Shown here piece after piece: positions 1,240 to 17,772 of a stretch of DNA of 17,774 bases. The translations under genes and the position numbers were made by a program. The notes under the pieces were generated by a model. That model was not told the origin of the DNA, searched no databases, and saw only the letters and a list, made by a program, of their open reading frames with translations. Origin of the DNA: Marinosulfonomonas sp. (lineage in GTDB: Bacteria; Pseudomonadota; Alphaproteobacteria; Rhodobacterales; Rhodobacteraceae); NCBI GenBank assembly GCA_015494385.1, contig WGBJ01000120.1, positions 1-17,774 of the forward strand, written 5' to 3'. Positions within the stretch are counted from its first letter, which is position 1. Every line of letters begins with the position of its first letter.

Positions 1240-1269
1240 AGCAAACCCAATTCTGCTGGATACGCTCTA
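1237..1269. terminator. Inverted repeat between convergent genes, possible weak bidirectional terminator
   Basis: TAGAGC at 1237-1242 is repeated in inverted form as GCTCTA at 1264-1269, giving a 6-bp stem with a 21-nt loop that includes the stop codons of both the membrane-protein gene (plus) and dnaE2 (minus). The loop is long and there is no clear T-run, so this is a weak candidate. Confidence 0.25.
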
Positions 1270-4494: not shown

Positions 4495-5954
4495 GCGAAT
4501 TCCCCCTGCACATACCAGTTCGGGGCCTGCGGAGTGTAAAACAGCCAAAGGCGGCGCCCCTCTTTGGTGTCCACCTGCCAATAGTCCCGCACACCCGTGC
4601 GCCAGTTGTCATCTGACAGCCACCATTCGGGGGCGATGCGTTCCGGCCCAATGGCCCGTCCCGTGGTCATCGCCATGCGCCGCCAGCGAAAGCGGGCCGG
4701 CGGGCGGGGGCCATGACCTGTAATCGCTTCGGGGGCAAACAGGCGCAAAGGACGCGGTCGCGAGGCGACCCAGCCCCCTTGGGGGCGGGAATAGGCGGCA
4801 GGCGAAATGATAAAGCCGCGTTCGGGGATATGGCTGTCGGCGGGCAGGAACCTTTGCACATTTTCCAGCCCGATCCGCACCCCGATCCGGGTGATCAAAT
4901 CCGCCAGTTTGTCATCATGCGTGTCAGTGCCGTGGCTGTGGCTGATCTGGCGGGCGGTCAGCGGTTCAATGCGGGTGGCAACAAGGCGCAGCTGATCAAT
5001 GCCATAGCCCGCATCCACCCCCTCGATCCCGCGCTCAAACAGCGGCAGGATGCGGGCGGCATCATGCAAAGGCTGGGCAAGGCGCAGTTCAACCTGCTGG
5101 CTGGCCTGATCCACCCGCCGCAAGGTCAGCAACAGGATACGCGCGCCTTTGTCGCCGGCCTTCAGTTTGGCGCAAAGGCGGCCCAGCAGGCGTTCGGTGC
5201 CTGCCATCACATCCCCCGTCAGGCCGATCGGGTCCGGCAAGGTCATGCGCACCCCGTAATGGGGGGGGCGGGACAGGGGGGAAATGCTTTCGGGTTGATC
5301 CCCCAGCGCCTGATCCAGACGCAGCACAACATCGGTGCCAAAACGCCGTGACAGCGTGGCGCGCGGCAGGGCCAGAATGTCGGAAATACGACGCAAGCCA
5401 AGGCGCTGCAGGGCAATGCAGGTTTTGCCCCCAAGCCGCAGCGCGGCGACGGGCAAGGCCGCAAGCCGGGATGGGCTGCATATGATACCATCGCCAAAAT
5501 GCGCCATCGCCCATGCCGCCCCGCGCGTATCCGCCAGCCCCAGACGCACCGCGAAACCCGCACGGGCAAGGCGCAACTGCATATCGTCCAGCATTGCCCC
5601 TTCGCCGCCGAACAGATGCGCCGAACCGGAAATATCCAGCACCAGCCCGTCGTCCCCCTCAAGCCCGACCCAGGGGCAATAGCGCGTGGCCCAGCGCGCC
5701 AGCACATGCAAAAAGCGCCGGTCTGCCTCGGGGTCGGCAGGGCGGCTTTGCAGATCACGACAAAAGGCGCGGGCATCCGACAGGCCCATACCACGATGCA
5801 ACCCCGCCTTTTCGGCCTGCGGGTTCAGGCAATAAATCCGCTCGGTGTTGCTTTGGCGCAGGGTCAGGGCAAAAGGGCCCTCAACGGGGCGTGCGCGTAG
5901 AACCCTTTCGCTGGGCAACCTCGGAAACCACATTGATACGACGCGTCTGCGCAT
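4491..5954 (-). CDS. imuB: ImuB, catalytically inactive Y-family polymerase-like mutasome hub
   Basis: 487 residues. The protein follows the Y-family polymerase fold order but begins RRVVSMWFPRLPSERVL, where active enzymes have the Asp-x-Asp metal site; the second acidic motif is also altered, keeping only Asp107 in LVLDISGSAHLFGG. Loss of these residues is the known hallmark of ImuB, which acts as the clamp-binding bridge that brings DnaE2 to stalled forks rather than as a polymerase. A helix-hairpin-helix/little-finger region and a basic, Trp-rich C-terminal tail follow. The start overlaps the end of imuA by 74 nt and the stop overlaps the dnaE2 start by 4 nt, consistent with coupled translation of one operon. 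An internal ATG at 5933 is a less likely start, since it would remove the RRRVVS strand. Confidence 0.93.
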   Translation of the reverse strand: MRRRVVSMWFPRLPSERVLRARPVEGPFALTLRQSNTERIYCLNPQAEKAGLHRGMGLSDARAFCRDLQSRPADPEADRRFLHVLARWATRYCPWVGLEGDDGLVLDISGSAHLFGGEGAMLDDMQLRLARAGFAVRLGLADTRGAAWAMAHFGDGIICSPSRLAALPVAALRLGGKTCIALQRLGLRRISDILALPRATLSRRFGTDVVLRLDQALGDQPESISPLSRPPHYGVRMTLPDPIGLTGDVMAGTERLLGRLCAKLKAGDKGARILLLTLRRVDQASQQVELRLAQPLHDAARILPLFERGIEGVDAGYGIDQLRLVATRIEPLTARQISHSHGTDTHDDKLADLITRIGVRIGLENVQRFLPADSHIPERGFIISPAAYSRPQGGWVASRPRPLRLFAPEAITGHGPRPPARFRWRRMAMTTGRAIGPERIAPEWWLSDDNWRTGVRDYWQVDTKEGRRLWLFYTPQAPNWYVQGEFA

Positions 5955-6459
5955 CCCATCTTACATCCCATGCCATTAATGTTCCTGATTTGTTCTTAAT
6001 AATCTCCCACCGCTGCAGAGTCGAGTCTGCTGGGTCAAAAAGCGAAGAACACCGCCAGCGGGTTTGCGCGGCATTGTTGCCCATCCCTTCGGGAATAATA
6101 CAAAGCCCGGTTGCACCCCCCGACTCGGCTGCCAGTTGCAACCGGCGTCCGGCGGTAAAGCCAAGCGGTTTTGCCAACTCGATCACCATCAGTGACACCG
6201 CACCGGAGCGCAGCGTTTCCTCGGCAACGCCCAGCCCCTCGACCTGATCGGCAACCTTGGCCAACAGCAGGTTTTGCGGGTCCATATAGGTGTGAAACCC
6301 CGTCGGGTTGATTTGTTCCCCCTGCCAGCTTTCGGCGATCCACATCACATTGCCCCCCTTTTGCCCCGCCAGGGCAAAGGCAAAAGACACGGCATTGGCA
6401 CCGCAAACCTCGTGGGTGCGGGAATTACGAAGGGGAAAGAGGGTCGAAAAAGCAGACAT
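5881..6459 (-). CDS. imuA: ImuA, RecA/SulA-related mutasome accessory protein
   Basis: 192 residues from the ATG at 6459; an in-frame TTG six codons upstream is possible but less likely. The central part (ETLRSGAVSLMVIELAKPLGF, then GRRLQLAAESGGATGLCII) matches the RecA-like core of ImuA/SulA-type proteins, in which the ATP-binding P-loop is degenerate; no GxxxxGKT motif is visible. The known role is to bind and stimulate ImuB and DnaE2 during damage-induced mutagenesis. Position as first gene of imuA-imuB-dnaE2 and the overlap with imuB support the assignment more strongly than the sequence alone, since ImuA proteins diverge fast. Confidence 0.82.
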   Translation of the reverse strand: MSAFSTLFPLRNSRTHEVCGANAVSFAFALAGQKGGNVMWIAESWQGEQINPTGFHTYMDPQNLLLAKVADQVEGLGVAEETLRSGAVSLMVIELAKPLGFTAGRRLQLAAESGGATGLCIIPEGMGNNAAQTRWRCSSLFDPADSTLQRWEIIKNKSGTLMAWDVRWDAQTRRINVVSEVAQRKGSTRTPR

Positions 6460-6482
6460 CACGGGAATACTACACAAAGGGG

Positions 6483-6533: not shown

Positions 6534-6803
6534 TCACCGCAGCTGGCTATCCTTGCTTCCCCGCCGGTTGATCCCCGGCCTTGGCTTATAGGCCGCGTCG
6601 CGTTCCTGCATACAGTCGATACACAGCTTCACACCGGGCAGCGCCACCCGCCGCGCTTCGGGGATCGGTTCTTCGCATTCCGCGCAATGGGTCAGGCTTT
6701 CCCCGACCGGTGTTTTGCGAGCCTTCATGCGGGCCAGTTCGTCCGATATGGACGCCTCGATCTGTTCTTCCACCGCGCCATCACGCGCCCATCCGCCGGC
6801 CAT
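6534..6803 (-). CDS. DksA/TraR-type C4 zinc-finger protein (YbiI-like)
   Basis: 89 residues. A helical N-terminal half (residues 10-30) precedes a four-cysteine zinc finger: Cys40-x2-Cys43 and Cys61-x2-Cys64, spaced as in the DksA/TraR family, with the typical IPEARR between the pairs. It is much shorter than DksA itself and lacks the long coiled coil with its Asp-x-x-Asp-Ala tip, so it belongs to the short YbiI/TraR-like group. Such proteins may bind in the RNA polymerase secondary channel; no function is proven for most. A good ribosome site (AAAGGA) lies about 8 nt before the ATG. It is followed on the same strand by imuA after 74 nt and is divergent from the dipeptidase gene. Confidence 0.87.
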   Translation of the reverse strand: MAGGWARDGAVEEQIEASISDELARMKARKTPVGESLTHCAECEEPIPEARRVALPGVKLCIDCMQERDAAYKPRPGINRRGSKDSQLR

Positions 6804-6916
6804 GTGCTGTCCTTTCCTGTGGCATGATGCCAGCCTATCGCGGGACAGGGCAAAAGCAAGGCTGGAAATTACAACCCAAGGGCCGTAACCTGCCCCGAAA
6901 TATAAGGGAGATCACC

Positions 6917-8092
6917 ATGCGCACATTCGGAAAATGGCTGGGGCGGCTTTGCCTGCTGGGGGCTTTGGCCCTGATTGCCACATTCATCTTTTTGCCCGGC
7001 TATGTGGAAAAGGGCCGCAATGCGGTGGCCCCGCATGACCCCTACCCTGTATCCGATGCCGCCCGCGCGCTGCATGACAGCATGGTGATTGGCGACTGGC
7101 ACGCCGACCCCCTGTTGTGGAACCGCGACCTGACCCAGCGGGGCAGTTACGGGCAAGTGGATATTCCACGCCTGCAGGATGGCAACGTGGCGATACAGGT
7201 GTTCACGGCAGTGACGAAAAGCCCCAAGGGGCTGAATTACGAACACAATGATCCGAATGCCTTTGACAACATCAAACTGATTGCGTTTTTCCAGCTCTGG
7301 CCGACACGCACATGGTTCAGCATTTTTGAACGGGCGGTCTATCAGGCCGAGAAACTGCAAGCGTTCGAGGCCGCCGAGCCGGACAACCTGAAGATCATCC
7401 TGACCCGCAGCGATCTGGAAGAGGTGCTGAAACGCCGCGCGGCGGGGGAAAAGATTGTCGGCGGTATTCTGGGGATCGAGGGCGCGCATCCGCTGGAAGG
7501 CAAAATCGAAAATCTGGACAAGCTGGAAGCGGCGGGTTACCGGTTGATCGCCTTGCAGCATTTCTTTGATAACGAGTTGGGCGGCACGCTGCACAGCCGC
7601 GAAAACAACGGGCTGACCGATTTCGGGCGGCAGGTGGTGGAACAGGTCGCCAAACGCGGCATGATTCTGGATGTGGCCCATTCCAGCACCAAGGTGGTCG
7701 AACAGGTGCTGGACATGGTGGATATCCCGTTGGTGCTGTCCCACAGCGGGATCAAATCAAATTGCGACACCAAGCGCAACATTCCCGATGCCTTGATGAA
7801 ACGCATCGCTGCCACCGGCGGGGTGATCGGCATGGGGTACTGGCAGGAAGTGACTTGTGATTACAGCCCCGACGGGATTGCAAAATCCATCAAGGCGGCG
7901 ATTGCCGTGGTGGGTGAGGATGCGGTTTCACTGGGGTCGGATTTTGACGGATCGGTTGCGACGACGTTTGATACATCTGAACTGGCAGCGATCACTGATG
8001 CGATGCTGCGCGCGGGGTTGACAGAAGCGCAAATCCGCAAGGTCGCGGGGGAAAACATGCTGCGGGTTCTGCGGGCGAGGCTGAAGGATTAG
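6917..8092 (+). CDS. Membrane dipeptidase, peptidase family M19 (renal dipeptidase-like)
   Basis: 391 residues from the ATG at 6917, which has a GGGAG ribosome site 6 nt upstream; the longer open frame upstream overlaps the divergent gene and is not used. Residues 8-28 form one hydrophobic segment (signal anchor or uncleaved signal peptide), so the catalytic domain is probably periplasmic and tethered. All binuclear zinc ligands of family M19 are visible: His62 and Asp64 (WHAD; often HND in relatives), bridging Glu188 (GIEGAH), His255 (DVAHSS), His276 (LSHSG) and catalytic Asp342 (GSDFDG). The family hydrolyses dipeptides, including D-amino-acid dipeptides, and some members act on beta-lactams or dehydropeptides. 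It appears to be a single-gene unit. Confidence 0.94.
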   Translation: MRTFGKWLGRLCLLGALALIATFIFLPGYVEKGRNAVAPHDPYPVSDAARALHDSMVIGDWHADPLLWNRDLTQRGSYGQVDIPRLQDGNVAIQVFTAVTKSPKGLNYEHNDPNAFDNIKLIAFFQLWPTRTWFSIFERAVYQAEKLQAFEAAEPDNLKIILTRSDLEEVLKRRAAGEKIVGGILGIEGAHPLEGKIENLDKLEAAGYRLIALQHFFDNELGGTLHSRENNGLTDFGRQVVEQVAKRGMILDVAHSSTKVVEQVLDMVDIPLVLSHSGIKSNCDTKRNIPDALMKRIAATGGVIGMGYWQEVTCDYSPDGIAKSIKAAIAVVGEDAVSLGSDFDGSVATTFDTSELAAITDAMLRAGLTEAQIRKVAGENMLRVLRARLKD

Positions 8093-8248
8093 GGGGGAGT
8101 AAGCTGGGAGGGAGCGTATGGATCGGAACAATGCCTCATAGGGCTTTCCTGGGTGCGCCGATTACATTCAACCAATAAACGGCCACATAGGTCCACACCC
8201 GGATCTTGTAAAAACAGGGAGATTGCAATTCCAGTGTTAGGGAATAGG
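8093..8248. other. AT-richer intergenic stretch before the orphan gene
   Basis: 156 nt between the dipeptidase stop and the chosen start of the orphan gene. A GTG at 8153 keeps the orphan gene's frame open, so part of this stretch could be coding if that start is used, but the peptide it would add (rich in Arg, His and Thr) looks non-coding. I see no tRNA end, insertion-sequence terminus or clear promoter. Confidence 0.4.
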
Positions 8249-8602
8249 ATGAAAGCATTTCGTGAATTAGCCACTCATGCTGATCAGTACATTGCGGATT
8301 TGTCAGTTTCTGGAGAGCCGGTTCCCGGAGTGATAGATGATTACTCCAAACATGACCCACATGATTGGCAGAAAATTGTATTGCACTACCTCTTAAATCA
8401 TAATGACAGGTATCGCTCCAATTTACATTCTGAAGTATTAAAAGAGATATCTGCGATAGAAACGGATGCCCAGTTTTCGGAATTATTGGAAATACAAAAC
8501 GAAGTATCTGGCGTGTATATCATCAGCGAGGAAAACAAACGGCAGGATTTACTGCGCCTTAAAGAAGCATTAAAAAGGGCTGTGGAATCTGGGCTAACCT
8601 AG
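8249..8602 (+). CDS. Hypothetical small soluble protein, AT-rich orphan
   Basis: 117 residues from the ATG at 8249, preceded by AGGGA at a suitable distance. I do not recognise the family. The protein is hydrophilic with no signal peptide or membrane segment, acidic, and predicted by eye to be mostly helical: residues 1-20, 38-55, 60-80 and a final charged helix (NKRQDLLRLKEALKRAVES). Base composition and codon choice (TTA, ATA, AAA, AGG) differ plainly from the GC-rich neighbours on both sides, which suggests recent acquisition. It stands alone between the dipeptidase and the 3' end of the convergent catabolic operon, so context gives no role. It could also be an immunity or antitoxin-like protein that lost its partner; that is only a guess. 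Confidence 0.55.
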   Translation: MKAFRELATHADQYIADLSVSGEPVPGVIDDYSKHDPHDWQKIVLHYLLNHNDRYRSNLHSEVLKEISAIETDAQFSELLEIQNEVSGVYIISEENKRQDLLRLKEALKRAVESGLT

Positions 8603-8666: not shown

Positions 8667-11105
8667 TCAGCCTTTGATCCGCTTCATTATCGCGTCATAC
8701 AGCGGGGTCATGTGGACGGTGCAGGGCACGCGCTCGGTGGCGACTTCCAGTTCATAGCTGCCCTCCATGATATAATCGCGCGTCACCCCGTCCGGATTGC
8801 GGACATAGCCGTAACCGATTGATTTATCGACGGTATATCCAAAACCGCCCGAGGTCAGCCAGCCCACCCGTTCGCCGTTGCGATAGATGGTTTCGCGGCC
8901 CAGAAGCACCACGTCAGGATCACAAGTGAAACAGGCCATCATCTTTTTCACCCCACCGTCCGCCTGCACCTGCGCGGCCTCGCGGCCCTTGAACGGGGTG
9001 TTGCCTTTCAGTTTCACGGCCCAGCCAAGGCCCGCTTCATGCGGGGTGTGGTCGGGGCCGATGTCAGCCCCCCACGCACGGTATCCTTTTTCCAGCCGCA
9101 GGGATTCAATCGCGCGGTAGCCGGCGTTCTTCAGCCCGTGTTCGGCCCCCGCCTGCATCAAAGCCGCGTAAACCGTGGTGGCGTATTCGACCGGCAGGTG
9201 CAGCTCCCACCCCAACTCGCCGACATAAGTCACCCGCAGCGCCAGAACGGGGCAGCCCGCGATACCGATGGTTTTGGTGGTGCCAAAGGGGAATCCCGCG
9301 TTTGACACATCGGCGCGTGTGACCGCTTGCAGGATGTCGCGCGCACGCGGTCCCATCAGGGACAGCACCGCGTTGCTTGAGGTAATATCGAACAGTTGGC
9401 AATTCATCCCGTCGGGAATATTGCGGGAAATCCAGTCGAAATCATGGGTGGCAAAGCCGGTGCCGGTGACGATGTAGAATTCATCCTGCGACACCCGTGC
9501 AATGGTCAGATCGCACTCGATCCCGCCGTGATCGTTCAGCATCTGCGTATAGGTCAGCGCCCCGACGGGCTTGTCCACGTTATTGGCGCAAATCCAGTTC
9601 AGCGCGGCCAGCGCATCCGGCCCTTTCAATGCGAATTTGGCAAAGGATGTCTGGTCGAACAGCACAGCGGCCTCGCGGCACGCCTTATGCTCGCGCCCGA
9701 CCGCGTCAAACCAGTTCTGCCGCCCGAAGCTGTAGACATCCTGCGAGGTTTCGCCAGCACCGGCAAACCAGTTCGGACGCTCCCAGCCCAGCTTCTCGCC
9801 AAAACAGGCGCCCTGATCCTTCAGCACCTCGTAAAGCGGTGACTTGCGGCAGGGGCGACCGGATGAATGTTCCTCGTAAGGCCAGGCCATCGTGTAATGC
9901 TTGCCGTAGGCCTCAATGGTTCGGGTGCGCACCCAGTCGGTATCGAAATGCGGGCGGCCAAAGCGGCGGATGTCGGCGGACCATAGATCAAAGGGCGGCT
10001 CGCCATTTTTCACCCATTCGGCCAGCGCCATACCCGCGCCACCACCGGCGGCGATGCCAAAGGCGTTGAACCCCGCACCGACAAAGAAATTGCGCAATTC
10101 GGGCGCTTCGCCAATGATGAAATTACCATCCGGCGTGAAGCTTTCCGGTCCGTTGGTCAGCGTCTTGATGCCCGCCGTTTCCAGTGCCGGCACACGGCCC
10201 AGCGCCAATTCCATCAGCGGCTCGAAGTGGTCAAAGTTGCTGTCCAGCAGCGTGTAATGGAACCCCTTGGGGGTACCGTCCACCGCCCATGGAATCGGGT
10301 TAGGCTCGTAACCGCCCATCACCAGCCCGCCGACCTCTTCCTTGTAATAGGTCAGGCGGTCCGGGTCGCGCAGGGTGGGCAGGTCTTTGGGCATACCGGC
10401 AATCGGTTCGGTCACCATGTATTGATGCTCCATGCTGACCAGCGGGATGTTGACGCCAAAACGGGCGGCAAAGGTGCGGCTCCACTGCCCCGCACACAGC
10501 ACTACGGATTCACATTCAACGCGGGTCTGATCGGTGATCACCGCCTTGATCACGCCTTTGTCGATCTCAAGGTCCGTGACCTTGCAATCCTCAACAATCT
10601 GCGCCCCGTTCATACGCGCGCCCTTGGCCAGCGCCTGCGTAATATCGGACGGATTGGCCTGCCCGTCCGTCGGCATAAAGGCCGCGCCGACCACATCGTC
10701 CACATTCATCAGCGGCCACAGGTCTTGGGCCTCTTGCGGGGTCAGCAGGTCCATTTGCAGGCCAAAGGATCGGGCGGTGGTGGCCTGTCGTTTGACCTCG
10801 GTCCAGCGTTCCTGATTGCAGGCCAGCCGCAAGCCGCCGTTCATCTTCCAACCCGTGCCCAACCCCGTTTCGGCCTCGATGCTGTTATACAGGTCCACCG
10901 AATAGCCCAAAAGCTGTGTGATGTTGGCATTGGAGCGTAGTTGCCCCACCAGACCGGCCGCGTGAAACGTGGTGCCCGATGTCAGTTTCTGGCGCTCCAG
11001 CAACAGCACCTCGACGCCCAGTTTCGCCAGATGGTAGGCCGTGGAACAGCCAACGATACCACCACCGATAATGACAACACGCGAGGATTTGGGCAGGGTT
11101 TTCAT
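8667..11105 (-). CDS. Dimethylglycine/sarcosine dehydrogenase-like FAD enzyme with C-terminal GcvT domain
   Basis: 812 residues from the ATG at 11105, which lies 7 nt after the kinase stop; the frame extends upstream into the kinase gene but conservation begins at VVIIGGGIVGCS. Layout: an N-terminal DAO-type FAD domain (GGGIVG at 14-19, Glu37 for the ribose), a linker domain (about 400-450), then a GcvT/aminomethyltransferase-like folate domain to the end (GELGWELHLP, RLEKGYRAWGADIG, HEAGLGWAVK). His48 in SGTTFHAAG sits where DMGDH and SarDH attach FAD covalently. The family oxidatively N-demethylates amino acids such as dimethylglycine or sarcosine and passes the one-carbon unit to tetrahydrofolate. 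No signal peptide: cytoplasmic. Being last in a transporter operon, it should act on the imported compound or a product of it. The exact substrate is open. Confidence 0.93.
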   Translation of the reverse strand: MKTLPKSSRVVIIGGGIVGCSTAYHLAKLGVEVLLLERQKLTSGTTFHAAGLVGQLRSNANITQLLGYSVDLYNSIEAETGLGTGWKMNGGLRLACNQERWTEVKRQATTARSFGLQMDLLTPQEAQDLWPLMNVDDVVGAAFMPTDGQANPSDITQALAKGARMNGAQIVEDCKVTDLEIDKGVIKAVITDQTRVECESVVLCAGQWSRTFAARFGVNIPLVSMEHQYMVTEPIAGMPKDLPTLRDPDRLTYYKEEVGGLVMGGYEPNPIPWAVDGTPKGFHYTLLDSNFDHFEPLMELALGRVPALETAGIKTLTNGPESFTPDGNFIIGEAPELRNFFVGAGFNAFGIAAGGGAGMALAEWVKNGEPPFDLWSADIRRFGRPHFDTDWVRTRTIEAYGKHYTMAWPYEEHSSGRPCRKSPLYEVLKDQGACFGEKLGWERPNWFAGAGETSQDVYSFGRQNWFDAVGREHKACREAAVLFDQTSFAKFALKGPDALAALNWICANNVDKPVGALTYTQMLNDHGGIECDLTIARVSQDEFYIVTGTGFATHDFDWISRNIPDGMNCQLFDITSSNAVLSLMGPRARDILQAVTRADVSNAGFPFGTTKTIGIAGCPVLALRVTYVGELGWELHLPVEYATTVYAALMQAGAEHGLKNAGYRAIESLRLEKGYRAWGADIGPDHTPHEAGLGWAVKLKGNTPFKGREAAQVQADGGVKKMMACFTCDPDVVLLGRETIYRNGERVGWLTSGGFGYTVDKSIGYGYVRNPDGVTRDYIMEGSYELEVATERVPCTVHMTPLYDAIMKRIKG

Positions 11106-11112
11106 AAGGGTC

Positions 11113-11994
11113 TCAGCTTTGCTTGTAAGTGTCATAGGCGCGCTGGAAACGGATAAGGTTTTCAGCGGTATAGGCGGCGTAGTCAATGTCGAGGGTTGAT
11201 GTAAGTTCGGACACCATGCTCCACATACATTCGCGCAAAAGCGAGGCGCATTTCATCGCGTGATAACGGTGCAGCAGATCGTCGGTGACCTGTCCCTCAT
11301 AGTAGAGATCCAGCATCACGGCCTCTTGCCCCTCGTTCAGGGAATTGTTGCTGGCCAGCCCGCCCAGATCGAACAGCGGTGAATTGAAACCGGCATAATC
11401 CCAGTCGATCAGCCACAGGCGTTTGCCGTCATCCAGAAAATTCGCCGCCATCAGATCGTTGTGGCCAAAGACGATTTCAACGGGGCCAACGGCGGCCTCC
11501 AGCTTTTCGGAAATGGCAAGGTAATCATCCAGTTGCGCGGCATAGTTGCTGTTACCTTCGCGCAGGGTGGCGGTGTAATCGCGGATCACATGGAACACCC
11601 AGAAGATCAGCGCGGGACCACGGAAATGTTTGGGGATTTCGTGATGGCAGCGCTGCAGCAGCGGGATGATGCGGGCCAGCATATCGGGGTCGGCCACGTC
11701 GGGTTCGTCCAGCGTTTTGGCATCGATATAGTCGATCACGGTCAACCCGTCCTCGACATGGACAACAGCAGGCGACAGACCCGCGGCATGGGCCGCACGC
11801 GCGGCGGCCAGCTCGTTAAAGCGCAGCAACTGGTGCTCGGGCAGATCATCGCCAAACCGGACCACATAACGGCCGGAATCGTCCGTTACAGTAAAGTTCA
11901 GATTGGTGCGTCCGCCGCCCAAAGGCTCAGGTTCGATATCCCCTTGCCAGATCGGCAATGACTTGATGCGGTTCAGGGCGGTCTCTTTATCCAT
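11113..11994 (-). CDS. Choline kinase/aminoglycoside phosphotransferase-family small-molecule kinase
   Basis: 293 residues. The Brenner-type catalytic loop is intact: His178-Asn-Asp180 through Asn185 (HNDLMAANFL), and the metal-binding Asp197 in LIDWDYAG; the N-lobe shows a Gly-rich GGGRTN turn and VVRFG strand. This is the fold of choline/ethanolamine kinases, LicA and APH enzymes, which transfer phosphate from ATP to a hydroxyl group. The ATG at 11994 overlaps the permease stop by 8 nt and has GGAGAG before it; the open frame upstream is inside the permease gene. Its place between transporter and demethylating flavoenzyme suggests that it phosphorylates the imported compound or a breakdown product. 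LicA-like choline kinase is the nearest guess, antibiotic resistance is unlikely in this setting. Confidence 0.9.
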   Translation of the reverse strand: MDKETALNRIKSLPIWQGDIEPEPLGGGRTNLNFTVTDDSGRYVVRFGDDLPEHQLLRFNELAAARAAHAAGLSPAVVHVEDGLTVIDYIDAKTLDEPDVADPDMLARIIPLLQRCHHEIPKHFRGPALIFWVFHVIRDYTATLREGNSNYAAQLDDYLAISEKLEAAVGPVEIVFGHNDLMAANFLDDGKRLWLIDWDYAGFNSPLFDLGGLASNNSLNEGQEAVMLDLYYEGQVTDDLLHRYHAMKCASLLRECMWSMVSELTSTLDIDYAAYTAENLIRFQRAYDTYKQS

Positions 11995-13990
11995 TTGCAC
12001 TCTCCAGTCCATATCTGACCCGCGCCGATCTGGCGCTGGCTGTGATAATTCTGTCGGCAATTATCGCGATAAATGCAATGGCAAAACCGGCGACCAGTCC
12101 GCGCCCCGTGTCGGCCTTGGTCAGGGCGATATAAACCTCTTGGCCCAAGTCGCGTGTACCCACCAGCGCGGTGATCACCAGCATCGACAGGGCCAGCATG
12201 ATGGTCTGGTTCAGCCCCAGCAGGATTTCCGGCAAGGCCAGTGGCAAACGGATGCGCGACAGCAACTGGCGTTTGGTGCAGCCCGAGACCACGCCCGCCT
12301 CGATCAACTCGGGACTGACCGAGCGCACGCCGTGGGCGGCATAGCGCACAGCAGGCACCACGGCGTACAGGACGATGGCGACCATGGCGGTAAAATCACC
12401 GATGCGAAACAGCATCACCACGGGGATCAGATAGACGAAACTGGGCAGGGTTTGCAGCGTGTCGATCAGCACGCCGATGATGCGCCCGGCCCGTTCATTC
12501 ACGGCCGCCAGAACCCCCAAGGGGATGCCGATCACGCTGGCGATCACCACGGATGTGCCGCACAGATATACTGTGATCATTGCCTTTTCCCACATGCCGG
12601 TTGCGGCGATGAATCCGGCCATCAGCAGGTTCATCAGGGCCAGTTTCCAGCCGCCAAAAGTCCAGCCAATGGCAGTGACCATTGCAATGGCCCAGACCCA
12701 CGGGATGCCAAGGAAGAAGCGTTTTACCGGCAGCAGGAACCCTTGCAGGAAGAACAGTTTGACCGCCTCGAACTGGTCATAGAAATTGATATTCAGGTAT
12801 TTCACCCCGTTGTCCCAGAACTTGCCGGTGGTCAGGGTGGCGGCATCCGGATAGGTCTGCACGGCGGGCAGGATCAGGCCAACCCCGTACGAGACCAGCA
12901 GAATGGCCAGCACGATCACACTGCGCGGGTGGCGCTTGATCCATGTGTCGCCTTTGGGCGGTGGGGTGAATGTGGTGGCACGCTGGGCAAAGGCCTGTGA
13001 CAGCCGGTCAATCGCCACCGCCAGAATGACAATCGCAATGCCGGCCTCGAACCCGCCACCGATGTTCAGGCGGCGCAGGGCGCTTAGCACATCAAAGCCA
13101 AGCCCCCCTGCCCCGATCATACTGGCGATAATCACCATGTTCAGCGACAGCATGATCACCTGATTGACCCCCACCACCAGGCTGGCCCGTGCCGAGGGCA
13201 CCAGCACCCGCCACGTCATCTGCCGCCGGGTGCAGCCGGACATCACGCCGAAATCCTTGATCTCGGGATCAACCGCGTGCAGCGCCATGGTGGTGATCCG
13301 CACCATTGGCGGCATGGCATAGATCACGGTCGCCACCAGCGCCGACACGGGACCAAAGCCGAACATGAACAGGATCGGCACCAGATAGGCGAAAATCGGG
13401 ATGGTTTGCATCAGATCCAGAATTGGCTTCAGGATGCGTTCAAACGACGGGTGGCGATAGGCGGTGATGCCCAGCAACAGCCCGCCAGCGACCCCGATCG
13501 GCACCGCAATCACCACCGAGGCCAGCGTCACCATCGCGCTTTCCCATTGCCCGAACACCGCCAGATACAGGAACGCCGCACCAACGATAGCGGCCAGCAG
13601 CCAGTCACGCGCGTAATGGCCCAGCGCCACCACCCCCGCCATGACCGCAATCCAGCTGAACGGCGGCACCAATTGCACCGCGCGGCGGCCGTGTCCTTCG
13701 ACAAACCCTTCGGCCAGCAGGGCGCGGGCCAGATTGTAGGGTTGCTCGATCATCCAGCTGATGCCGCGGGTGAATTCGGTGAAGGTGAACAGGCCGAAGG
13801 ATGCCTCCTCGACCAGCCATATCATCGCCGCCGAAATGCTGTCCTTTAGCGGGATCACCCACGCATCGGGGTATTGCATGGCCCAGCCCATTCCCGCCGC
13901 TTCCAGCCAGCCTTGGCCGAAGGTGGCCAACAGCCACGTCAGGGCAAACAGCCCCAGCCAGATCATGGATTTGGGAGAGACCCGCGCCAT
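11987..13990 (-). CDS. Betaine/TMAO-type ABC transporter permease, two permease domains fused in one chain
   Basis: 667 residues from the ATG at 13990, one nucleotide after the ATPase stop; a TTG start 10 codons upstream is less likely. Two complete ProW-like permease units are joined. Each has the cytoplasmic EAA loop that contacts the ATPase: VDPEIKDFGVMSGCTRRQ in the first half and VSPELIEAGVVSGCTKRQ in the second, each followed by LP-S/L-A and a NQxIMLxL helix. The halves also share QTIPIFAYLVPI and QTLPSFVYLIPV. Hydrophobic segments near the N-terminus and between the halves add further spans. Most ProW/ChoW proteins are about half this length and form homodimers; fused forms are known for TMAO-type (TmoV-like) transporters in roseobacters, from general knowledge. 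It should form the complete membrane channel alone, with two copies of the ATPase. Confidence 0.95.
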   Translation of the reverse strand: MARVSPKSMIWLGLFALTWLLATFGQGWLEAAGMGWAMQYPDAWVIPLKDSISAAMIWLVEEASFGLFTFTEFTRGISWMIEQPYNLARALLAEGFVEGHGRRAVQLVPPFSWIAVMAGVVALGHYARDWLLAAIVGAAFLYLAVFGQWESAMVTLASVVIAVPIGVAGGLLLGITAYRHPSFERILKPILDLMQTIPIFAYLVPILFMFGFGPVSALVATVIYAMPPMVRITTMALHAVDPEIKDFGVMSGCTRRQMTWRVLVPSARASLVVGVNQVIMLSLNMVIIASMIGAGGLGFDVLSALRRLNIGGGFEAGIAIVILAVAIDRLSQAFAQRATTFTPPPKGDTWIKRHPRSVIVLAILLVSYGVGLILPAVQTYPDAATLTTGKFWDNGVKYLNINFYDQFEAVKLFFLQGFLLPVKRFFLGIPWVWAIAMVTAIGWTFGGWKLALMNLLMAGFIAATGMWEKAMITVYLCGTSVVIASVIGIPLGVLAAVNERAGRIIGVLIDTLQTLPSFVYLIPVVMLFRIGDFTAMVAIVLYAVVPAVRYAAHGVRSVSPELIEAGVVSGCTKRQLLSRIRLPLALPEILLGLNQTIMLALSMLVITALVGTRDLGQEVYIALTKADTGRGLVAGFAIAFIAIIADRIITASARSARVRYGLESANG

Positions 13991-13991
13991 A

Positions 13992-15011
13992 TCAGGCCCC
14001 GTTCCCAACCAGCACGTCAATCACCCGCTGCGCATCAATCGCGCCAACGGCTTGCCCGTTTTCATCAATCACTTTCAATGGCTTGCCCGCGGCAACCACT
14101 TGCGAAGCCACCTCGTAAATCTTGGTACTGGCGGGTATACCTTCACCGCCACCATCAGCCCCTGCTTCCATCACGGCGCCCACACTCAACACCTTATCAC
14201 GCGGCACATGGCGGGTGAATTCCTGCACGTAGTCATCTGCCGGATTCAGCACCAGTTCCTCGGGCGTTGCGATCTGGATAATGTGGCCGTCTTTCATAAT
14301 CGCGATGCGGTCGGCAAGGCGAATTGCCTCGTCAAAATCATGGGTGATAAAGACGATGGTTTTCTTCAGCATCCCTTGCAGGCGCAGGAATTCATCCTGC
14401 ATCTCGCGGCGGATCAGCGGGTCCAATGCCGAAAACGGCTCGTCCAGAAACCAGATTTCCGGCTCGACCGCCAAGGAGCGCGCAATCCCGACCCGTTGTT
14501 GCTGCCCACCGGATAGTTCACGGGGGAAATAGCCTTCGCGCCCCTTCAGGCCGACCAGTTCGATCACCTCCAGCGCGCGGGCTTCGGCAGCGGATTTGCG
14601 TTGCCCTTGAATGCTCAGCGGAAAGGCGACGTTTTGCAAAACCGTCAGATGCGGCAACAGGGCAAAGTGTTGGAACACCATGCCCATTTTGTGGCGGCGC
14701 AATTCGATCAATTCGCGTTCGGACATCTTCAACATGTCCTGCCCGTCGATGGAAATCTCGCCCATAGTGGGTTCGATCAGCCCCGACAGCAAGCGCACCA
14801 GCGTGGATTTGCCCGAGCCGGACAGCCCCATAATCACAAAAATCTCGCCAGCCTCGATTTCCAGATCAGCGTGTTTGACCGCCCCGATCACGCCAAGCTT
14901 CTTCAACTCGTCGTCCGTCGGCGAAAACTGCTGGCTGTCCAGCATCTGCGACGGGATCGCACCGTATAGTTTCCACAGGTTTCTGCAGACAAGTTTTGCG
15001 GGGTGGGTCAT
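13992..15011 (-). CDS. Betaine/TMAO-type ABC transporter ATP-binding subunit (ProV/OpuAA-like)
   Basis: 339 residues. Motifs in order: Walker A GLSGSGKST (62-70), Q-loop Gln114, signature LSGGQQQR (166-173), Walker B and D-loop WFLDEPFSALD (187-197) and switch His224 (THD). The N-terminus carries the extra 25-45 residue insertion seen in ProV-like ATPases (LWKLYG to the helix before the first strand). After the nucleotide-binding domain comes a short C-terminal region with only one CBS-like unit (about 285-336), shorter than the paired CBS domains of E. coli ProV or OpuAA. It powers import through the fused permease encoded just downstream. A weak AGGCG ribosome site precedes the start; an out-of-frame ATG at 15015 is ignored. 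Confidence 0.95.
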   Translation of the reverse strand: MTHPAKLVCRNLWKLYGAIPSQMLDSQQFSPTDDELKKLGVIGAVKHADLEIEAGEIFVIMGLSGSGKSTLVRLLSGLIEPTMGEISIDGQDMLKMSERELIELRRHKMGMVFQHFALLPHLTVLQNVAFPLSIQGQRKSAAEARALEVIELVGLKGREGYFPRELSGGQQQRVGIARSLAVEPEIWFLDEPFSALDPLIRREMQDEFLRLQGMLKKTIVFITHDFDEAIRLADRIAIMKDGHIIQIATPEELVLNPADDYVQEFTRHVPRDKVLSVGAVMEAGADGGGEGIPASTKIYEVASQVVAAGKPLKVIDENGQAVGAIDAQRVIDVLVGNGA

Positions 15012-15036
15012 TCATTTCGCCTGTATTCAAGGTGTT

Positions 15037-15062
15037 GCGGGGCCAGCCATGACCGGCCCCGC
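15037..15062 (-). other. Stable GC hairpin between binding-protein and ATPase genes
   Basis: On the minus strand GCGGGGCCGG (15062-15053) pairs with CTGGCCCCGC (15046-15037) around a 6-nt loop, ten pairs including one G-U. No T-run follows, so it looks less like a full terminator and more like an mRNA-stabilising or attenuating stem. Such stems after binding-protein genes are a common way to give more binding protein than transporter. Confidence 0.65.
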
Positions 15063-15069
15063 AGATCGT

Positions 15070-16020
15070 TTACTGTGTAATCCAGCCCTGCCAGCGGGAT
15101 TCATTGGCGTCCATCCATGCGTTGACCACATCCTCGACGGATTTGCCATCCAGATCGACTTCGCCAACCATCGCGCTCATTTCCTCGTTGGTCAGGGTGT
15201 AGGCCTGCACGATCTTGTGCGCGCCGGGCCATTTGTCTTTCATACCCGCCCATGCGGCCTTCCAGATCGGGCCGCGCGGCTTGCCGCAATCATAGGCCTT
15301 GTCGGGGTTCACACCCCATGACGGGTCGGAATAGCATTCCGGTGTATAGGGCGGGAATTCCACAAACTCGCCTTCATATTTTGCCGGTGCCCAGTGTGGA
15401 ACATAGACCCACAAAATGACGGGCGCCTGCCGTTGATAGGCACTTTCCAGCTCGGCAAACAGCGCGGCATCGGTGCCCGCGTGGACCACTTCAAAGTCCA
15501 GCCCCAAGGCATCAACCCGCTCTTCGTCAAACCCGCCCCACGTAACAGGGCCGCCGACATAGCGCCCCTTTGGTGCGGTTTCCGGCGTGGCAAATTCACT
15601 GGCACAGGCCTTTAGCGCCTTCCAGTCGGGCAGACCGGGGCAGCGTTCTTTCATATATAGCGGATACCACCATTCCTCGATCGCTTGCAGACCGGTTTCG
15701 CCAACATTTTCCACCTTGCCGGTGGCAACGGCTTCGTCCAGCGCCTCTTGGCCGGTGGTGGCCCAGATTTCCATCGCCAGCGTCAGATCGCCGGTTTTCA
15801 GGCCAGCACATTGCGCGATGTAGTCGGCCTGCACATATTCGACGTTATAGCCCGCCTCTTCCAGCACAGCGCCCATGATCTGGGTGTTGATCAACTGGCC
15901 GGACCAGTCATGCAAAGTCAGTTTCAATGGATCGGCAGATTCGACCTCTGCCAGCGAAGCCGTGGCGACAAATGCACCAACAGCGGCCCCCATAAGGGTG
16001 CGTTTCAGTATATGCCTCAT
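15070..16020 (-). CDS. Periplasmic substrate-binding protein of the betaine/TMAO type (OpuAC/ProX-like)
   Basis: 316 residues with a classical signal peptide (basic start, hydrophobic 9-23, likely cut after ASLA at residue 24), so a periplasmic protein. The body fits the OpuAC-type family for quaternary amines, whose members hold the ligand in a cage of aromatic residues; candidate Trp are 39 (LHDWSG), 86 (MEIWAT), 117-118 (EEWWYP), 161 (VTWGG), 204 and 210 (LWVYVPHW). Cys127/Cys139 and Cys229/Cys245 are spaced like two disulfides. The ribosome site GGAGGTG lies close before the ATG. It is the first gene of the operon and is followed by a stable hairpin. Glycine betaine, choline, TMAO or a related compound are all possible ligands; the sequence alone does not decide. 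Confidence 0.93.
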   Translation of the reverse strand: MRHILKRTLMGAAVGAFVATASLAEVESADPLKLTLHDWSGQLINTQIMGAVLEEAGYNVEYVQADYIAQCAGLKTGDLTLAMEIWATTGQEALDEAVATGKVENVGETGLQAIEEWWYPLYMKERCPGLPDWKALKACASEFATPETAPKGRYVGGPVTWGGFDEERVDALGLDFEVVHAGTDAALFAELESAYQRQAPVILWVYVPHWAPAKYEGEFVEFPPYTPECYSDPSWGVNPDKAYDCGKPRGPIWKAAWAGMKDKWPGAHKIVQAYTLTNEEMSAMVGEVDLDGKSVEDVVNAWMDANESRWQGWITQ

Positions 16021-16127
16021 CGGGCACCTCCCAGGTTTTTAGTGACGGGATTCGCCCCGCCTTGGGCTCAAGGTGCGGCGATTCCCCGCATCCGTCAACA
16101 TTTTTACCGAATATCTGTGGGTTTCCC

Positions 16128-16182
16128 TTGGTTTTTCGTTGGCTTTTGAGGTTTTGCGCCGTAACTTGGCAAAATCGAAAAC
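16128..16182. promoter_or_regulatory. Divergent control region with TTTTCG-like repeats (candidate DeoR operator and promoter)
   Basis: The 181-nt gap between the binding-protein and DeoR genes holds TTGGTTTTTCG (16128-16138) directly followed by TTGGCTTTTGA (16139-16149) and GGTTTTGCG (16150-16158). The opposite strand has GTTTTCGATTTTG at 16182-16170. Direct repeats built on TTTCG/TTTTG words are known operators of DeoR-family proteins. A possible plus-strand promoter for the DeoR gene, TTGGCT (16139-16144), 17-nt spacer, TAACTT (16162-16167), overlaps them. On the minus strand a TTGACG word (16098-16093) could be the -35 for the transporter operon, with no clear -10. Confidence 0.45.
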
Positions 16183-16201
16183 CCGCAAACCCGAGGCCGG
16201 A

Positions 16202-17002
16202 ATGCCCAATACAGCCACCCGTTCAAACCACCGCGAACAGGAAATCCTGAAGGAACTGCGCCTTGCGGGCGGGTCGTGCCGTGTGGGGTATCTGGCGCAG
16301 CGGCTGGGGGTGTCGGACGAAACAGTCCGACGCAATATCAAGGCCTTGCAGGAAAAATCCCAGGTGCGCAAAGTGCACGGCGGCGTGCTGCTGGCCGAAG
16401 ACCTGACCCTGACCGAGCAACCCTTTCAGGCGCGCATGGATGTCAACGCCGAGGCCAAGCGGCAAATCGCGGGGAAACTGGCGCAAATCATCGAGGACGG
16501 GGATTCGCTGTTTCTAGATATCGGCTCGACCTCGGCCTATGCCGCGCGGGCGCTGAACAACCATCGCAACCTGTATGTCGTCACCAATTCGCTGACCGTG
16601 GCCAGCACACTGGCCGCCCGCAACGGCAACCGCGTGTTTTTCGCCGGCGGTGAATTGCGCGGCCATGACGGCGGGGCGTTCGGGCAGGACGCCATCGGGT
16701 TTATCCGCCGGTTCAACGTGCAATATGCGGTGTTTTCCGCGGGCGCGATCAACTGCGAAGTGGGCGTGATGCTGCACGACATCAACGAGGCCGACTTGCT
16801 GGCACAGGCTATGCCCCGCGCCCAGACCCGCATCCTGCTGGCTGACAGTTCCAAATTCGGTATCCGCGCCCCGATTGCGATCAACGACGCGGCCAGCATC
16901 GACATTCTGATCACCGAAACCGCCCCGCCCGATGCCGTCATCGACATGCTGGGCGAAAATGAAACCTCGCTTGTGATAGCGGGCCATGAAAAAGAACACT
17001 GA
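16202..17002 (+). CDS. DeoR-family transcriptional regulator
   Basis: 266 residues from the ATG at 16202, with GAGG 5-8 nt upstream; an open frame reaching back to 16073 runs through the promoter region and is not taken. An N-terminal DeoR winged helix (residues about 10-62) shows the recognition helix VSDETVRRNIKAL and the wing KVHGGVL. The C-terminal DeoR sensor domain has the phosphate-loop-like DIGSTSAYAA (about 96-105), NSL and ADSSKFG motifs; known members bind phosphorylated sugars or related phosphates and usually act as repressors relieved by ligand. It is divergent from the transporter operon and two nucleotides upstream of the phosphatase gene, so both units are its likely targets. 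A phosphorylated product of the operon's kinase would be a natural inducer; that is inference. Confidence 0.93.
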   Translation: MPNTATRSNHREQEILKELRLAGGSCRVGYLAQRLGVSDETVRRNIKALQEKSQVRKVHGGVLLAEDLTLTEQPFQARMDVNAEAKRQIAGKLAQIIEDGDSLFLDIGSTSAYAARALNNHRNLYVVTNSLTVASTLAARNGNRVFFAGGELRGHDGGAFGQDAIGFIRRFNVQYAVFSAGAINCEVGVMLHDINEADLLAQAMPRAQTRILLADSSKFGIRAPIAINDAASIDILITETAPPDAVIDMLGENETSLVIAGHEKEH

Positions 17003-17004
17003 AT

Positions 17005-17772
17005 ATGCAGCACTACCTGAACACCATTCTGGACATCACGGACACCGCCGAGGACATCCCCAAACGCTATTTCCGCCAGACGCTGGACATCATCCACAAG
17101 GGCGACGACAGCCCGGTGACAGTGGCCGACCAGACCTGCGAGCGGATGATCCGTGATGCGCTGGCACAGCATTTCCCCGAGCATTCCATTCTGGGCGAGG
17201 AATTCGGGCATGAGGATAAAGGCGGCAATCTGTTATGGATCATTGACCCGATTGACGGCACCCGCAGTTTCATATCGGGGATGCCGCTATACAGTATGTT
17301 GATTGCGCTGTTGCAAAACGGAGTGCCAAAACTGGGCGTGGTGCGGATGCCCGAACTGGGCGAAGTGTTCACCGGCAGTGCGGATGGCGCGGCAGTGAAT
17401 GGCACAGCGATTTCCACATCAGACGTCACGGCATTGAAAGACGCCTTTGTCTATATCAACGAGGGCAACAAAATCGCACTGGATGCGCCGGACCTGTTCC
17501 GGCGCCTGTGCCAGTCGGGGCGTGAACAGCGGCTTAGTTATGATGGCTATCCGCATATGTTGGTGGCGATGGGCCATGCGGATGCCTGCATAGATTACGA
17601 CCTGCAACCCTATGATTTCCTGCCGCTGGTGCCGGTGATTGAAGGGGCGGGCGGTGTGATCACCGACTGGTCCGGCGCGCCGTTAACCTTGCAATCGGAC
17701 GGGCGCGTCGTGGCGGCATCGACAAAGGAATTGCACCGCGAAATGCTGGACCTATTAGGGTCAGACCATTAA
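17005..17772 (+). CDS. Inositol-monophosphatase-family phosphatase (HisN-like)
   Basis: 255 residues. All metal-site motifs of the Mg-dependent IMPase family are visible: Asp41 (VTVAD), Glu65 (LGEEFG), Asp81 and Asp84 in WIIDPIDGTRSF, and Asp204 in YDLQPYDFLPLVPVIEGAGG. The last motif resembles HisN-type histidinol-phosphatases and related family members more than classical inositol monophosphatases, but the genes for histidine synthesis are not here. The start is 2 nt after the DeoR stop, so the two genes form a transcription unit. Context suggests that it removes phosphate from a metabolite of the adjacent pathway, opposite to the kinase at 11113-11994. The stop lies two bases before the window end. 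Confidence 0.92.
   Translation: MQHYLNTILDITDTAEDIPKRYFRQTLDIIHKGDDSPVTVADQTCERMIRDALAQHFPEHSILGEEFGHEDKGGNLLWIIDPIDGTRSFISGMPLYSMLIALLQNGVPKLGVVRMPELGEVFTGSADGAAVNGTAISTSDVTALKDAFVYINEGNKIALDAPDLFRRLCQSGREQRLSYDGYPHMLVAMGHADACIDYDLQPYDFLPLVPVIEGAGGVITDWSGAPLTLQSDGRVVAASTKELHREMLDLLGSDH

What the first reader, a model, noticed from the sequence alone, without database searches (positions are those of the whole stretch)
8667..17772. Candidate undescribed uptake and catabolism system for an N-methylated compound
Seen: a tight five-gene operon (binding protein, ATPase, fused permease, choline-kinase-type kinase, DMGDH/SarDH-like GcvT flavoenzyme; gaps of 58, 1, -8 and 7 nt), divergent from a DeoR regulator and a HisN/IMPase phosphatase. 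Known: OpuAC/ProX systems import quaternary amines, DMGDH-type enzymes remove N-methyl groups to folate, APH/choline kinases phosphorylate hydroxyls. Inferred: one locus imports an N-methylated, hydroxyl-bearing osmolyte, phosphorylates it, and demethylates it. I do not know a characterised pathway with exactly this kinase-phosphatase-demethylase set.
Basis: partly seen in the sequence, partly recalled or inferred. Interest (0 to 1): 0.75.

Follow-up and report, generated by a model that had tools for sequence, protein, structure and literature searches.

The report
Kinase-coupled demethylation operon for methylated ethanolamines
A marine bacterium carries a recurring gene set that seems to import a small methylated amino-alcohol, tag it with phosphate and strip off its methyl groups, which would be a new way for bacteria to feed on choline-like compounds if confirmed at the bench.

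Summary
In detail: a five-gene operon (gaps 58, 1, -8, 7 nt) divergent from a DeoR regulator and an IMPase-family phosphatase. Kinase and GcvT-flavoenzyme are the core. In 149 genomes of the order the kinase occurs in 18 and the flavoenzyme (60% identity or more) in exactly those 18, always side by side; the binding protein (68% or more) in 13, all among the 18. The binding protein resembles the TMAO-binding protein TmoX: aromatic cage and Glu kept, three pocket positions swapped in nearly all of 60 sequences. The flavoenzyme keeps DMGDH catalytic residues but forms its own clade; 16 of the 18 genomes also hold a canonical DMGDH-clade enzyme. Neighbours elsewhere point to ethanolamine: gamma-glutamyl-ethanolamine genes (three lineages) and EutH directly after the flavoenzyme. 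Best reading: uptake of N-methylated ethanolamines, phosphorylation, folate-linked oxidative demethylation, dephosphorylation to ethanolamine; like the 2025 phosphocholine pathway of Eubacterium limosum, but with flavin instead of cobalamin. Against: the window's own draft genome lacks the ethanolamine ligase and a canonical DMGDH, phosphatase and transporter are often missing elsewhere, some kinases stand alone, and in 1.4-Mb genomes the locus sits among choline/betaine-type genes. Substrate and order of steps are inferred.

The parts
15070..16020 (-). substrate-binding protein, OpuAC/TmoX-like, with signal-peptide-like N-terminus (by eye); cage W39 W86 W161, E115, plus G90 W204 Y206
   Evidence: PF04069; best solved relative 4xz6, E 4.7e-80, the TmoX structure (PMC8918994); pocket map
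13992..15011 (-). ABC ATPase, ProV type
   Evidence: TIGR01186 351.1 over cut-off 326.6
11987..13990 (-). fused (double) ABC permease
   Evidence: two BPD_transp_1 stretches; start recomputed
11113..11994 (-). choline/ethanolamine-kinase-type phosphotransferase (KIN)
   Evidence: PF01633 9.3e-19; profile matches 3dxq and choline kinase 4r77
8667..11105 (-). GcvT-fused flavoenzyme (FLAV): DAO, FAO_M, GCV_T, GCV_T_C; H48 (FAD-His, role recalled), H227/Y253 dyad, D532 folate side (role recalled)
16021..16201 (.). divergent promoter/operator stretch with a CCCACA word and a TTGACG -35-like element
   Evidence: 8-mer CACAAAAA in 28 of 60 related stretches, not in the window's own
16202..17002 (+). 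DeoR/GlpR-family regulator
   Evidence: PF08220, PF00455
17005..17772 (+). inositol-monophosphatase-family phosphatase (HisN-like, below HisN cut-off)
   Evidence: PF00459 4.3e-49; TIGR02067 246.4 < 275.15

Best explanation
The locus takes up and demethylates N-methylated ethanolamines (N,N-dimethyl- and/or N-monomethylethanolamine). The TmoX-like binding protein holds the methylammonium group in an aromatic cage and the hydroxyl on a Glu, in a pocket enlarged at one position. The choline-kinase-type enzyme phosphorylates the hydroxyl, giving an acidic amine that a DMGDH-like enzyme can bind. The flavoenzyme oxidises an N-methyl group and its GcvT half passes the carbon to tetrahydrofolate, with electrons going to ETF. 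The phosphatase frees ethanolamine, which in some relatives would enter the gamma-glutamyl-ethanolamine pathway to glycine. The DeoR regulator senses a phosphorylated intermediate. Shown: operon, families, strict kinase-flavoenzyme coupling in the order sample, remodelled cage, own flavoenzyme clade, linkage to ethanolamine genes in some lineages. Inferred: substrate, order of steps, role of phosphatase, electron acceptor in this host, inducer.
For: Kinase (E<=1e-40) and flavoenzyme (60% or more) in the same 18 of 149 genomes, adjacent in the window and in all 17 fetched regions; binding protein (68% or more) in 13 of 149, all inside those 18. Flavoenzyme directly after kinase in 77/80, 12/12, 17/17 and 28/40 loci. 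Pocket, 60 sequences including the window's: TmoX W55, W102, E131, W177 kept in 60; F106 is Gly in 59 and Ala in 1; F220 Trp in 60; W222 Tyr in 60 (TmoX residues from PMC8918994). Kinase matches choline kinases. Flavoenzyme keeps FAD-His, His-Tyr dyad and folate-side Asp but lies in a clade (49 rows, SH-aLRT 99, quick tree) apart from the canonical DMGDH-like clade (13 rows, 100); 16 of the 18 genomes also hold an enzyme of that clade (by tree, or 70% or more to its member L127). Ethanolamine links: GGAH-GS-ALDH-FeADH beside the operon in Salipiger L084 and Leisingera L022, GGAH-GS up to the contig end in L028, FeADH-ALDH and a distant GS (30%) in L021, the enzyme classes of the Phaeobacter ethanolamine operon in PMC10132767 (no sequence comparison with it made); EutH directly after the flavoenzyme in Nitratireductor L116 and in G305 (L168), the only one of 385 genomes of the class with EutH at E<=1e-40. 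ETF genes with the pair in L084, L163, L166, L167. Precedent for phosphorylation before demethylation: MthK/MthB (PMC12155760). Class-specific R250 and H386 (FLAV 47/47; DMGDH-like Glu and Gln 13/13, its numbers +1), two chosen after the fact out of 18 listed positions.
Against: The window's own MAG (92% complete) has no GS-like ethanolamine gene at E<=1e-90, no EutH and no canonical DMGDH-clade enzyme. Among the 17 order loci none has a close ethanolamine GS and only L108 has the Fe-ADH; genome-level GS association is weak (16/18 against 88/131, p 0.097). The phosphatase is in 26 of 149 loci. Kinases without a flavoenzyme after them: L009, L011, L012, and 12 of 40 in the class sample, of which L179 has one just before. 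In three 1.4-Mb genomes the flavoenzyme is one of only two such enzymes and lies beside BetA (L166) or a BHMT-like gene (L163, L167), which fits betaine metabolism; G066 too lacks a canonical DMGDH. Six Rhizobium loci have sugar-type ABC genes beside the pair and Shinella/Roseateles plasmids tripartite carriers. R250 is Arg in only 67% of the second, FLAV2, clade.
Confidence: 0.47

Rival explanations
1. Same substrates, other order: the flavoenzyme demethylates free N-methylethanolamines and the kinase phosphorylates the product (or choline) for lipid head groups or retention.
For: Kinases of the family occur without the flavoenzyme; EutH and the gamma-glutamyl pathway handle free ethanolamine.
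Against: Strict kinase-flavoenzyme coupling in the order sample; the nearest characterised enzymes act on carboxylated amines, which a phosphate ester mimics better than an alcohol; class-specific basic residues.
Confidence: 0.2
2. A choline/glycine-betaine module: the flavoenzyme is an alternative dimethylglycine dehydrogenase and the transporter brings in choline or betaine; the kinase is a side enzyme.
For: BetA (above the betA cut-off) beside the locus in L166 and beside a kinase of the family in L174; BHMT-like gene, below the BHMT cut-off, in L163 and L167; no other DMGDH-clade enzyme in those 1.4-Mb genomes, in G066 or in the window's own MAG; FtrA-type, GbdR-related regulators near some loci.
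Against: 16 of 18 order genomes also hold a canonical DMGDH-clade enzyme; own clade; betaine and dimethylglycine carry no hydroxyl for a kinase; the binding protein is far below the ChoX and ProX cut-offs.
Confidence: 0.18
3. Another hydroxylated N-methyl compound, for example an N-methylated amino-polyol or amino sugar.
For: Sugar-type ABC genes in six Rhizobium loci and tripartite carriers in Shinella and Roseateles plasmids beside the pair; DeoR regulators often sense sugar phosphates (recalled).
Against: Ethanolamine-type neighbours and a small TmoX-like cage.
Confidence: 0.12
4. TMAO or general methylamine scavenging with a chance set of neighbours.
For: Binding protein closest to TmoX among solved structures.
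Against: Three fixed pocket swaps; coupling to the kinase-flavoenzyme pair.
Confidence: 0.03

Closest known systems
MthK-MthB choline demethylation of Eubacterium limosum (PMC12155760)
   Same: choline-type kinase beside a demethylase that passes methyl carbon to tetrahydrofolate; phosphorylation comes first there
   Different: cobalamin/MttB methyltransferase, quaternary phosphocholine, anaerobic; here flavin/GcvT, which needs a tertiary or secondary amine
Dimethylglycine dehydrogenase (4p9s, 5l46, PMC5082570)
   Same: whole domain order, FAD-His, His-Tyr dyad, folate side
   Different: own clade, kinase-coupled, class-specific residues
TmoXVW TMAO transporter (4xz6; PMC8918994)
   Same: binding-protein family, aromatic cage, Glu
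   Different: three of seven pocket residues changed and nearly invariant in the changed form
Ethanolamine gamma-glutamylation operon (PMC10132767)
   Same: genes of these classes lie next to the system in some relatives
   Different: no demethylation, TRAP transporter; its ligase was not found in the window's genome

Membership tests
TMAO-binding protein TmoX | pocket W55 W102 F106 E131 W177 F220 W222 | tested here: not met
   4 of 7 kept, 3 changed
Choline ABC system ChoXWV | NCBIfam cut-offs for binding protein and ATPase | tested here: not met
   SBP 34.1 < 379.05, ATPase 299 < 483.75; the double permease does pass TIGR03416 (405.5 > 363, two stretches)
Dimethylglycine dehydrogenase | DAO + GcvT architecture with FAD-His and His-Tyr dyad | tested here: met
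Dimethylglycine dehydrogenase | membership of the canonical DMGDH-like clade of the order | tested here: not met
   the clade was recognised by its tandem 34% partner (12 of 15 loci), not by assay
Dimethylglycine dehydrogenase | activity on dimethylglycine | not testable with these tools
   needs assay
Choline/ethanolamine kinase | family profile and conserved HND / DWD kinase motifs | tested here: met
Choline/ethanolamine kinase | phosphorylates choline or ethanolamine | not testable with these tools
   needs assay
Histidinol-phosphatase HisN | TIGR02067 cut-off | tested here: not met
   246.4 < 275.15
MthK-MthB system | kinase adjacent to demethylase | tested here: met
   analogous arrangement only:
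MthK-MthB system | MttB-type cobalamin methyltransferase at the locus | tested here: not met
   no such family among the seven proteins
Ethanolamine gamma-glutamylation pathway | GS-like ethanolamine ligase in the genome | tested here: not met
   own MAG none at E<=1e-90; MAG is 92% complete

The most novel reading that the evidence does not exclude
A flavin- and folate-dependent N-demethylation that works only on phosphorylated amino-alcohols: kinase, DMGDH-like enzyme and phosphatase run the plant phospho-base methylation route (phosphoethanolamine to phosphocholine) backwards from phospho-dimethylethanolamine to ethanolamine, with a second kinase-flavoenzyme pair taking the next methyl group.
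Probability: 0.38. Interest if true: 0.75.

Novelty: new variant of a known kind. Interest (0 to 1): 0.6.

Why it matters
If true it gives aerobic bacteria a way to use dimethyl- and methylethanolamine, for which no gene-level pathway turned up in the searched library of openly licensed papers, links them to ethanolamine, folate and ETF metabolism, and shows that phosphate as a temporary acidic handle for demethylation arose outside the cobalamin system. The pair is in 18 of 149 genomes of the order; the kinase is in 42 of 385 of the class at E<=1e-55, including three 1.4-Mb genomes. It also warns that some 'dimethylglycine dehydrogenase' and 'TMAO/betaine transporter' annotations may be wrong.

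Tried and rejected
TMAO uptake: rejected on the pocket swaps. Plain DMGDH: weakened by clade and co-presence of canonical DMGDH, but kept as a rival because of the 1.4-Mb genomes, G066 and the own MAG. Genome-level association of the pair with the ethanolamine ligase: tested, not significant (p 0.097). Phosphate-binding residues: only class-specific candidates found; no structure was predicted, and whether R250/H386 face the active site is unknown. RNA families at gathering thresholds and tRNAs: none in the window. Paper searches for a described kinase plus DMGDH system or methylethanolamine catabolism: no such description in the listings (two searches listed papers on neighbouring pathways, some of which I read in part); one search listed the E. 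limosum precedent; one search listed no functional study of the R. pomeroyi genes SPO1131-1135 beyond PMC10030565 that I recognised from its titles. Rows dropped: four long-branch or odd flavoenzyme rows left out of the residue comparison (L091, L133, L040, L047); similar sequences thinned from 147 to 94 before the tree; one class hit (G342) of 41 not fetched; 53 of 113 plasmid records were not listed; of the 60 listed 14 were fetched: 12 with the pair (of the 19 whose kinase is 46% or more) used in the counts, and 2 of the distant kinase group, L088 and L089, left out. The sets overlap: L098, L101 and L147 have the contig lengths of L024, L034 and L071, so pooled counts, and the 60 binding proteins, are not independent.
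Full report
What is there. The window is one whole contig (C120, 17,774 bases) of a 3.04-Mb, 540-contig draft genome. On the minus strand lie a binding protein, an ATPase, a fused permease, a choline-kinase-type enzyme and a GcvT-fused flavoenzyme, with gaps of 58, 1, -8 and 7 nt. On the plus strand, 181 nt away, start a DeoR regulator and, 2 nt after it, an IMPase-family phosphatase. The contig ends 2 nt after the phosphatase. In the nearest relative fetched (L003, a Marinosulfonomonas MAG; kinase 93%, the part of the flavoenzyme held 93%) that operon continues with a second flavoenzyme and a second kinase; contig C370 of the window's own genome starts inside a kinase 87% identical over 102 residues to the second kinase of L003.

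The conserved unit. In a sample of 149 genomes of the order, the kinase (E<=1e-40) is in 18 and the flavoenzyme at 60% identity or more in the same 18; the next flavoenzyme hits are at 51%. In all 17 fetched regions they are adjacent. The binding protein at 68% or more is in 13 of the 149, all within the 18; its next hit is at 51%. In four partly overlapping sets a flavoenzyme directly follows the kinase in 77 of 80 named genome loci, 12 of 12 plasmid loci, 17 of 17 order loci and 28 of 40 class loci; the binding protein is in 41, 6, 12 and 12 of them, the phosphatase in 12, 3, 9 and 2, a DeoR relative in 56, 11, 14 and 11, a second kinase in 8, 3, 7 and 2 (lower bounds, since loci end at contig ends). 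Exceptions: L009, L011 and L012 have close kinases (68-70%) with no flavoenzyme after them, and 12 of the 40 class loci, with kinases of 36-57%, likewise, though L179 has one just before its kinase.

The binding protein. Its best solved relative by far is 4xz6, given as the TmoX structure in PMC8918994, where the seven pocket residues are listed (passages read). In 60 sequences, the window's included, W55, W102, E131 and W177 of TmoX are kept in all; F220 is Trp and W222 is Tyr in all; F106 is Gly in 59 and Ala in one. So it is a TmoX-like cage with its own fixed specificity and more room at one position. In PMC10030565 (section 17 read) two other OpuAC-type binding proteins of Ruegeria pomeroyi did not bind DMSP; whether one of them is this protein was not tested.

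The kinase. It matches PF01633 and, by profile, 3dxq and the choline kinase 4r77, with the kinase motifs and the C-terminal Trp and Tyr aligned. That 4r77 is LicA and that such residues form the choline cage in choline kinases is recalled.

The flavoenzyme. Closest solved relatives are rat and human DMGDH and Arthrobacter DMGO. The dyad His/Tyr (H227, Y253) aligns with DMGO His225/Tyr259 (named in PMC5082570, passages); the FAD-binding His (H48) and the folate-side Asp (D532, aligned to DMGO D552) are present, their roles being recalled. In a quick tree of 94 rows the kinase-linked enzymes form a clade of 49 rows (SH-aLRT 99), the second, KIN2-linked type another of 15 rows (100), and the widespread 44% enzymes a third of 13 rows (100); FLAV is nearer to the third than to the KIN2-linked clade (94). 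The 44% enzymes stand beside a 34-35% type in 12 of 15 loci. PMC4744692 (passages) names SPO3400 (DMG dehydrogenase) and SPO3396 (sarcosine dehydrogenase) in R. pomeroyi; that the 44/34% tandem corresponds to them is inference. 116 of 149 genomes have some match at E<=1e-190. An enzyme of the 44% clade (in the tree, or 70% or more to its member L127) is in 16 of the 18 kinase genomes; the own MAG and G066 have none. Positions R250 and H386 are Arg and His in 47 of 47 FLAV rows and Glu and Gln in 13 of 13 canonical rows; in the 15 KIN2-linked rows Arg is in 67% and His in all; 18 positions passed that filter (its numbering +1).

Clues to the substrate. Salipiger abyssi plasmid pPABY1 has DeoR-phosphatase divergent from binding protein-ATPase-permease-kinase-flavoenzyme, followed by ETF beta and an FAD-binding (ETF alpha-type) gene, folD, purU, then N-formylglutamate-amidohydrolase-type, GS-type, ALDH, iron-ADH and glyA. 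The amidohydrolase-GS-ALDH-ADH set matches the enzyme classes of the ethanolamine operon of Phaeobacter MED193 (PMC10132767, section 9). Leisingera L022 has the same set after the operon, L028 as far as its contig reaches, L021 (Rhodospirillaceae) has ADH-ALDH (55-56%) and a distant GS (30%) on the other strand, and four Kiloniella loci and L108 have the iron-ADH without the rest. Nitratireductor OM-1 has DeoR, kinase-flavoenzyme, then EutH, which passes a EutH equivalog cut-off. EutH (E<=1e-40) occurs in 1 of 385 genomes of the class, and there too it directly follows the flavoenzyme. Three fetched Shinella loci and one Roseateles-labelled plasmid carry a metal/formaldehyde-sensitive repressor after the flavoenzyme. 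These neighbours, the cage and the kinase family agree on a small amino-alcohol. A flavin amine dehydrogenase cannot take a quaternary ammonium (established chemistry), so dimethyl- or methylethanolamine is preferred to choline.

Results against. The own MAG has no ethanolamine GS, no EutH and no canonical DMGDH. None of the 17 order loci has a close GS nearby. Genome-level GS association is not significant. In G177, G404 and G481 (1.4 Mb, fetched loci 31-32% GC) the pair is followed by ETF and ETF-QO-like genes; beside it are BetA (L166, above the betA cut-off) or a homocysteine-methyltransferase/BHMT-like gene (L163, L167; below the BHMT cut-off), and only one other such flavoenzyme exists in each genome at E<=1e-60. 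There the flavoenzyme may serve as the dimethylglycine dehydrogenase. L174 has a kinase of this family with a HAD-like gene and BetA and no flavoenzyme. Six Rhizobium loci have sugar-type ABC genes and Shinella/Roseateles plasmids tripartite carriers beside the pair.

Mechanism. The coupling of an alcohol kinase to an enzyme whose relatives bind carboxylated amines suggests that phosphate supplies the acidic handle. This idea is stated by the authors of PMC12155760 for MthK/MthB (abstract, passages and section 10), where phosphocholine and not choline is the substrate of the demethylase. The phosphatase would complete the cycle; its patchy presence means that other phosphatases must do it elsewhere. 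DeoR-type regulators commonly sense phosphorylated metabolites (recalled). A second kinase lies at 20 of 149 loci, not always with a second flavoenzyme; in Rhizobium rosettiformans both pairs follow each other in one run of genes. Two pairs could take successive methyl groups. The methylating route phosphoethanolamine to phosphocholine is known from plants (PMC12473159, search listing only).

Verdict. The block is real and recurring, and no description of it was found in the searched library. It is a new variant of phosphorylation-first demethylation if the order of steps holds, and otherwise a new N-methyl-aminoalcohol catabolic module.

Noticed in passing
window 1267-6477: A DnaE2-type polymerase gene (PHP, DNA_pol3_alpha, finger domains) after an ImuB-type gene (IMS domain) and a short upstream ORF without a Pfam match, like a mutasome cassette (label recalled; domains).
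   Followed up: partly
window 6581-8092, 241-1239, 8153-8602: A membrane dipeptidase (Peptidase_M19) and two ORFs without Pfam matches at E<=1e-8.
   Followed up: no
G000 contig C370 (L002:3-311): The contig starts inside a kinase 87% identical over 102 residues to the second kinase of L003, so C120 and C370 may flank an unassembled second flavoenzyme.
   Followed up: partly
L134, L135: Flavoenzymes 50% identical to the window's with DeoR (and in L134 a phosphatase and an SBP_bac_6 binding protein) but no recognised kinase.
   Followed up: no
L009, L011, L012: Kinases 68-70% identical to the window's with no flavoenzyme after them.
   Followed up: no
L174:9346-14260: Run of FAD enzyme, BetA, HAD-like gene and a kinase of this family.
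   Followed up: no
L116:15391-16623, L168:12710: EutH, found in 1 of 385 genomes of the class at E<=1e-40, sits directly after the flavoenzyme.
   Followed up: yes
window 16021-16201 and related DeoR-SBP intergenic stretches: Repeated ACCACAAAA / TTGTGGTTTT words near a TTGACA-like element, a candidate DeoR operator; 28 of 60 stretches share CACAAAAA, the window's does not.
   Followed up: partly
L038, L086: Records labelled Mesoflavibacter and Roseateles (unverified) carry alphaproteobacterial-type versions of the locus; the names may be wrong.
   Followed up: no
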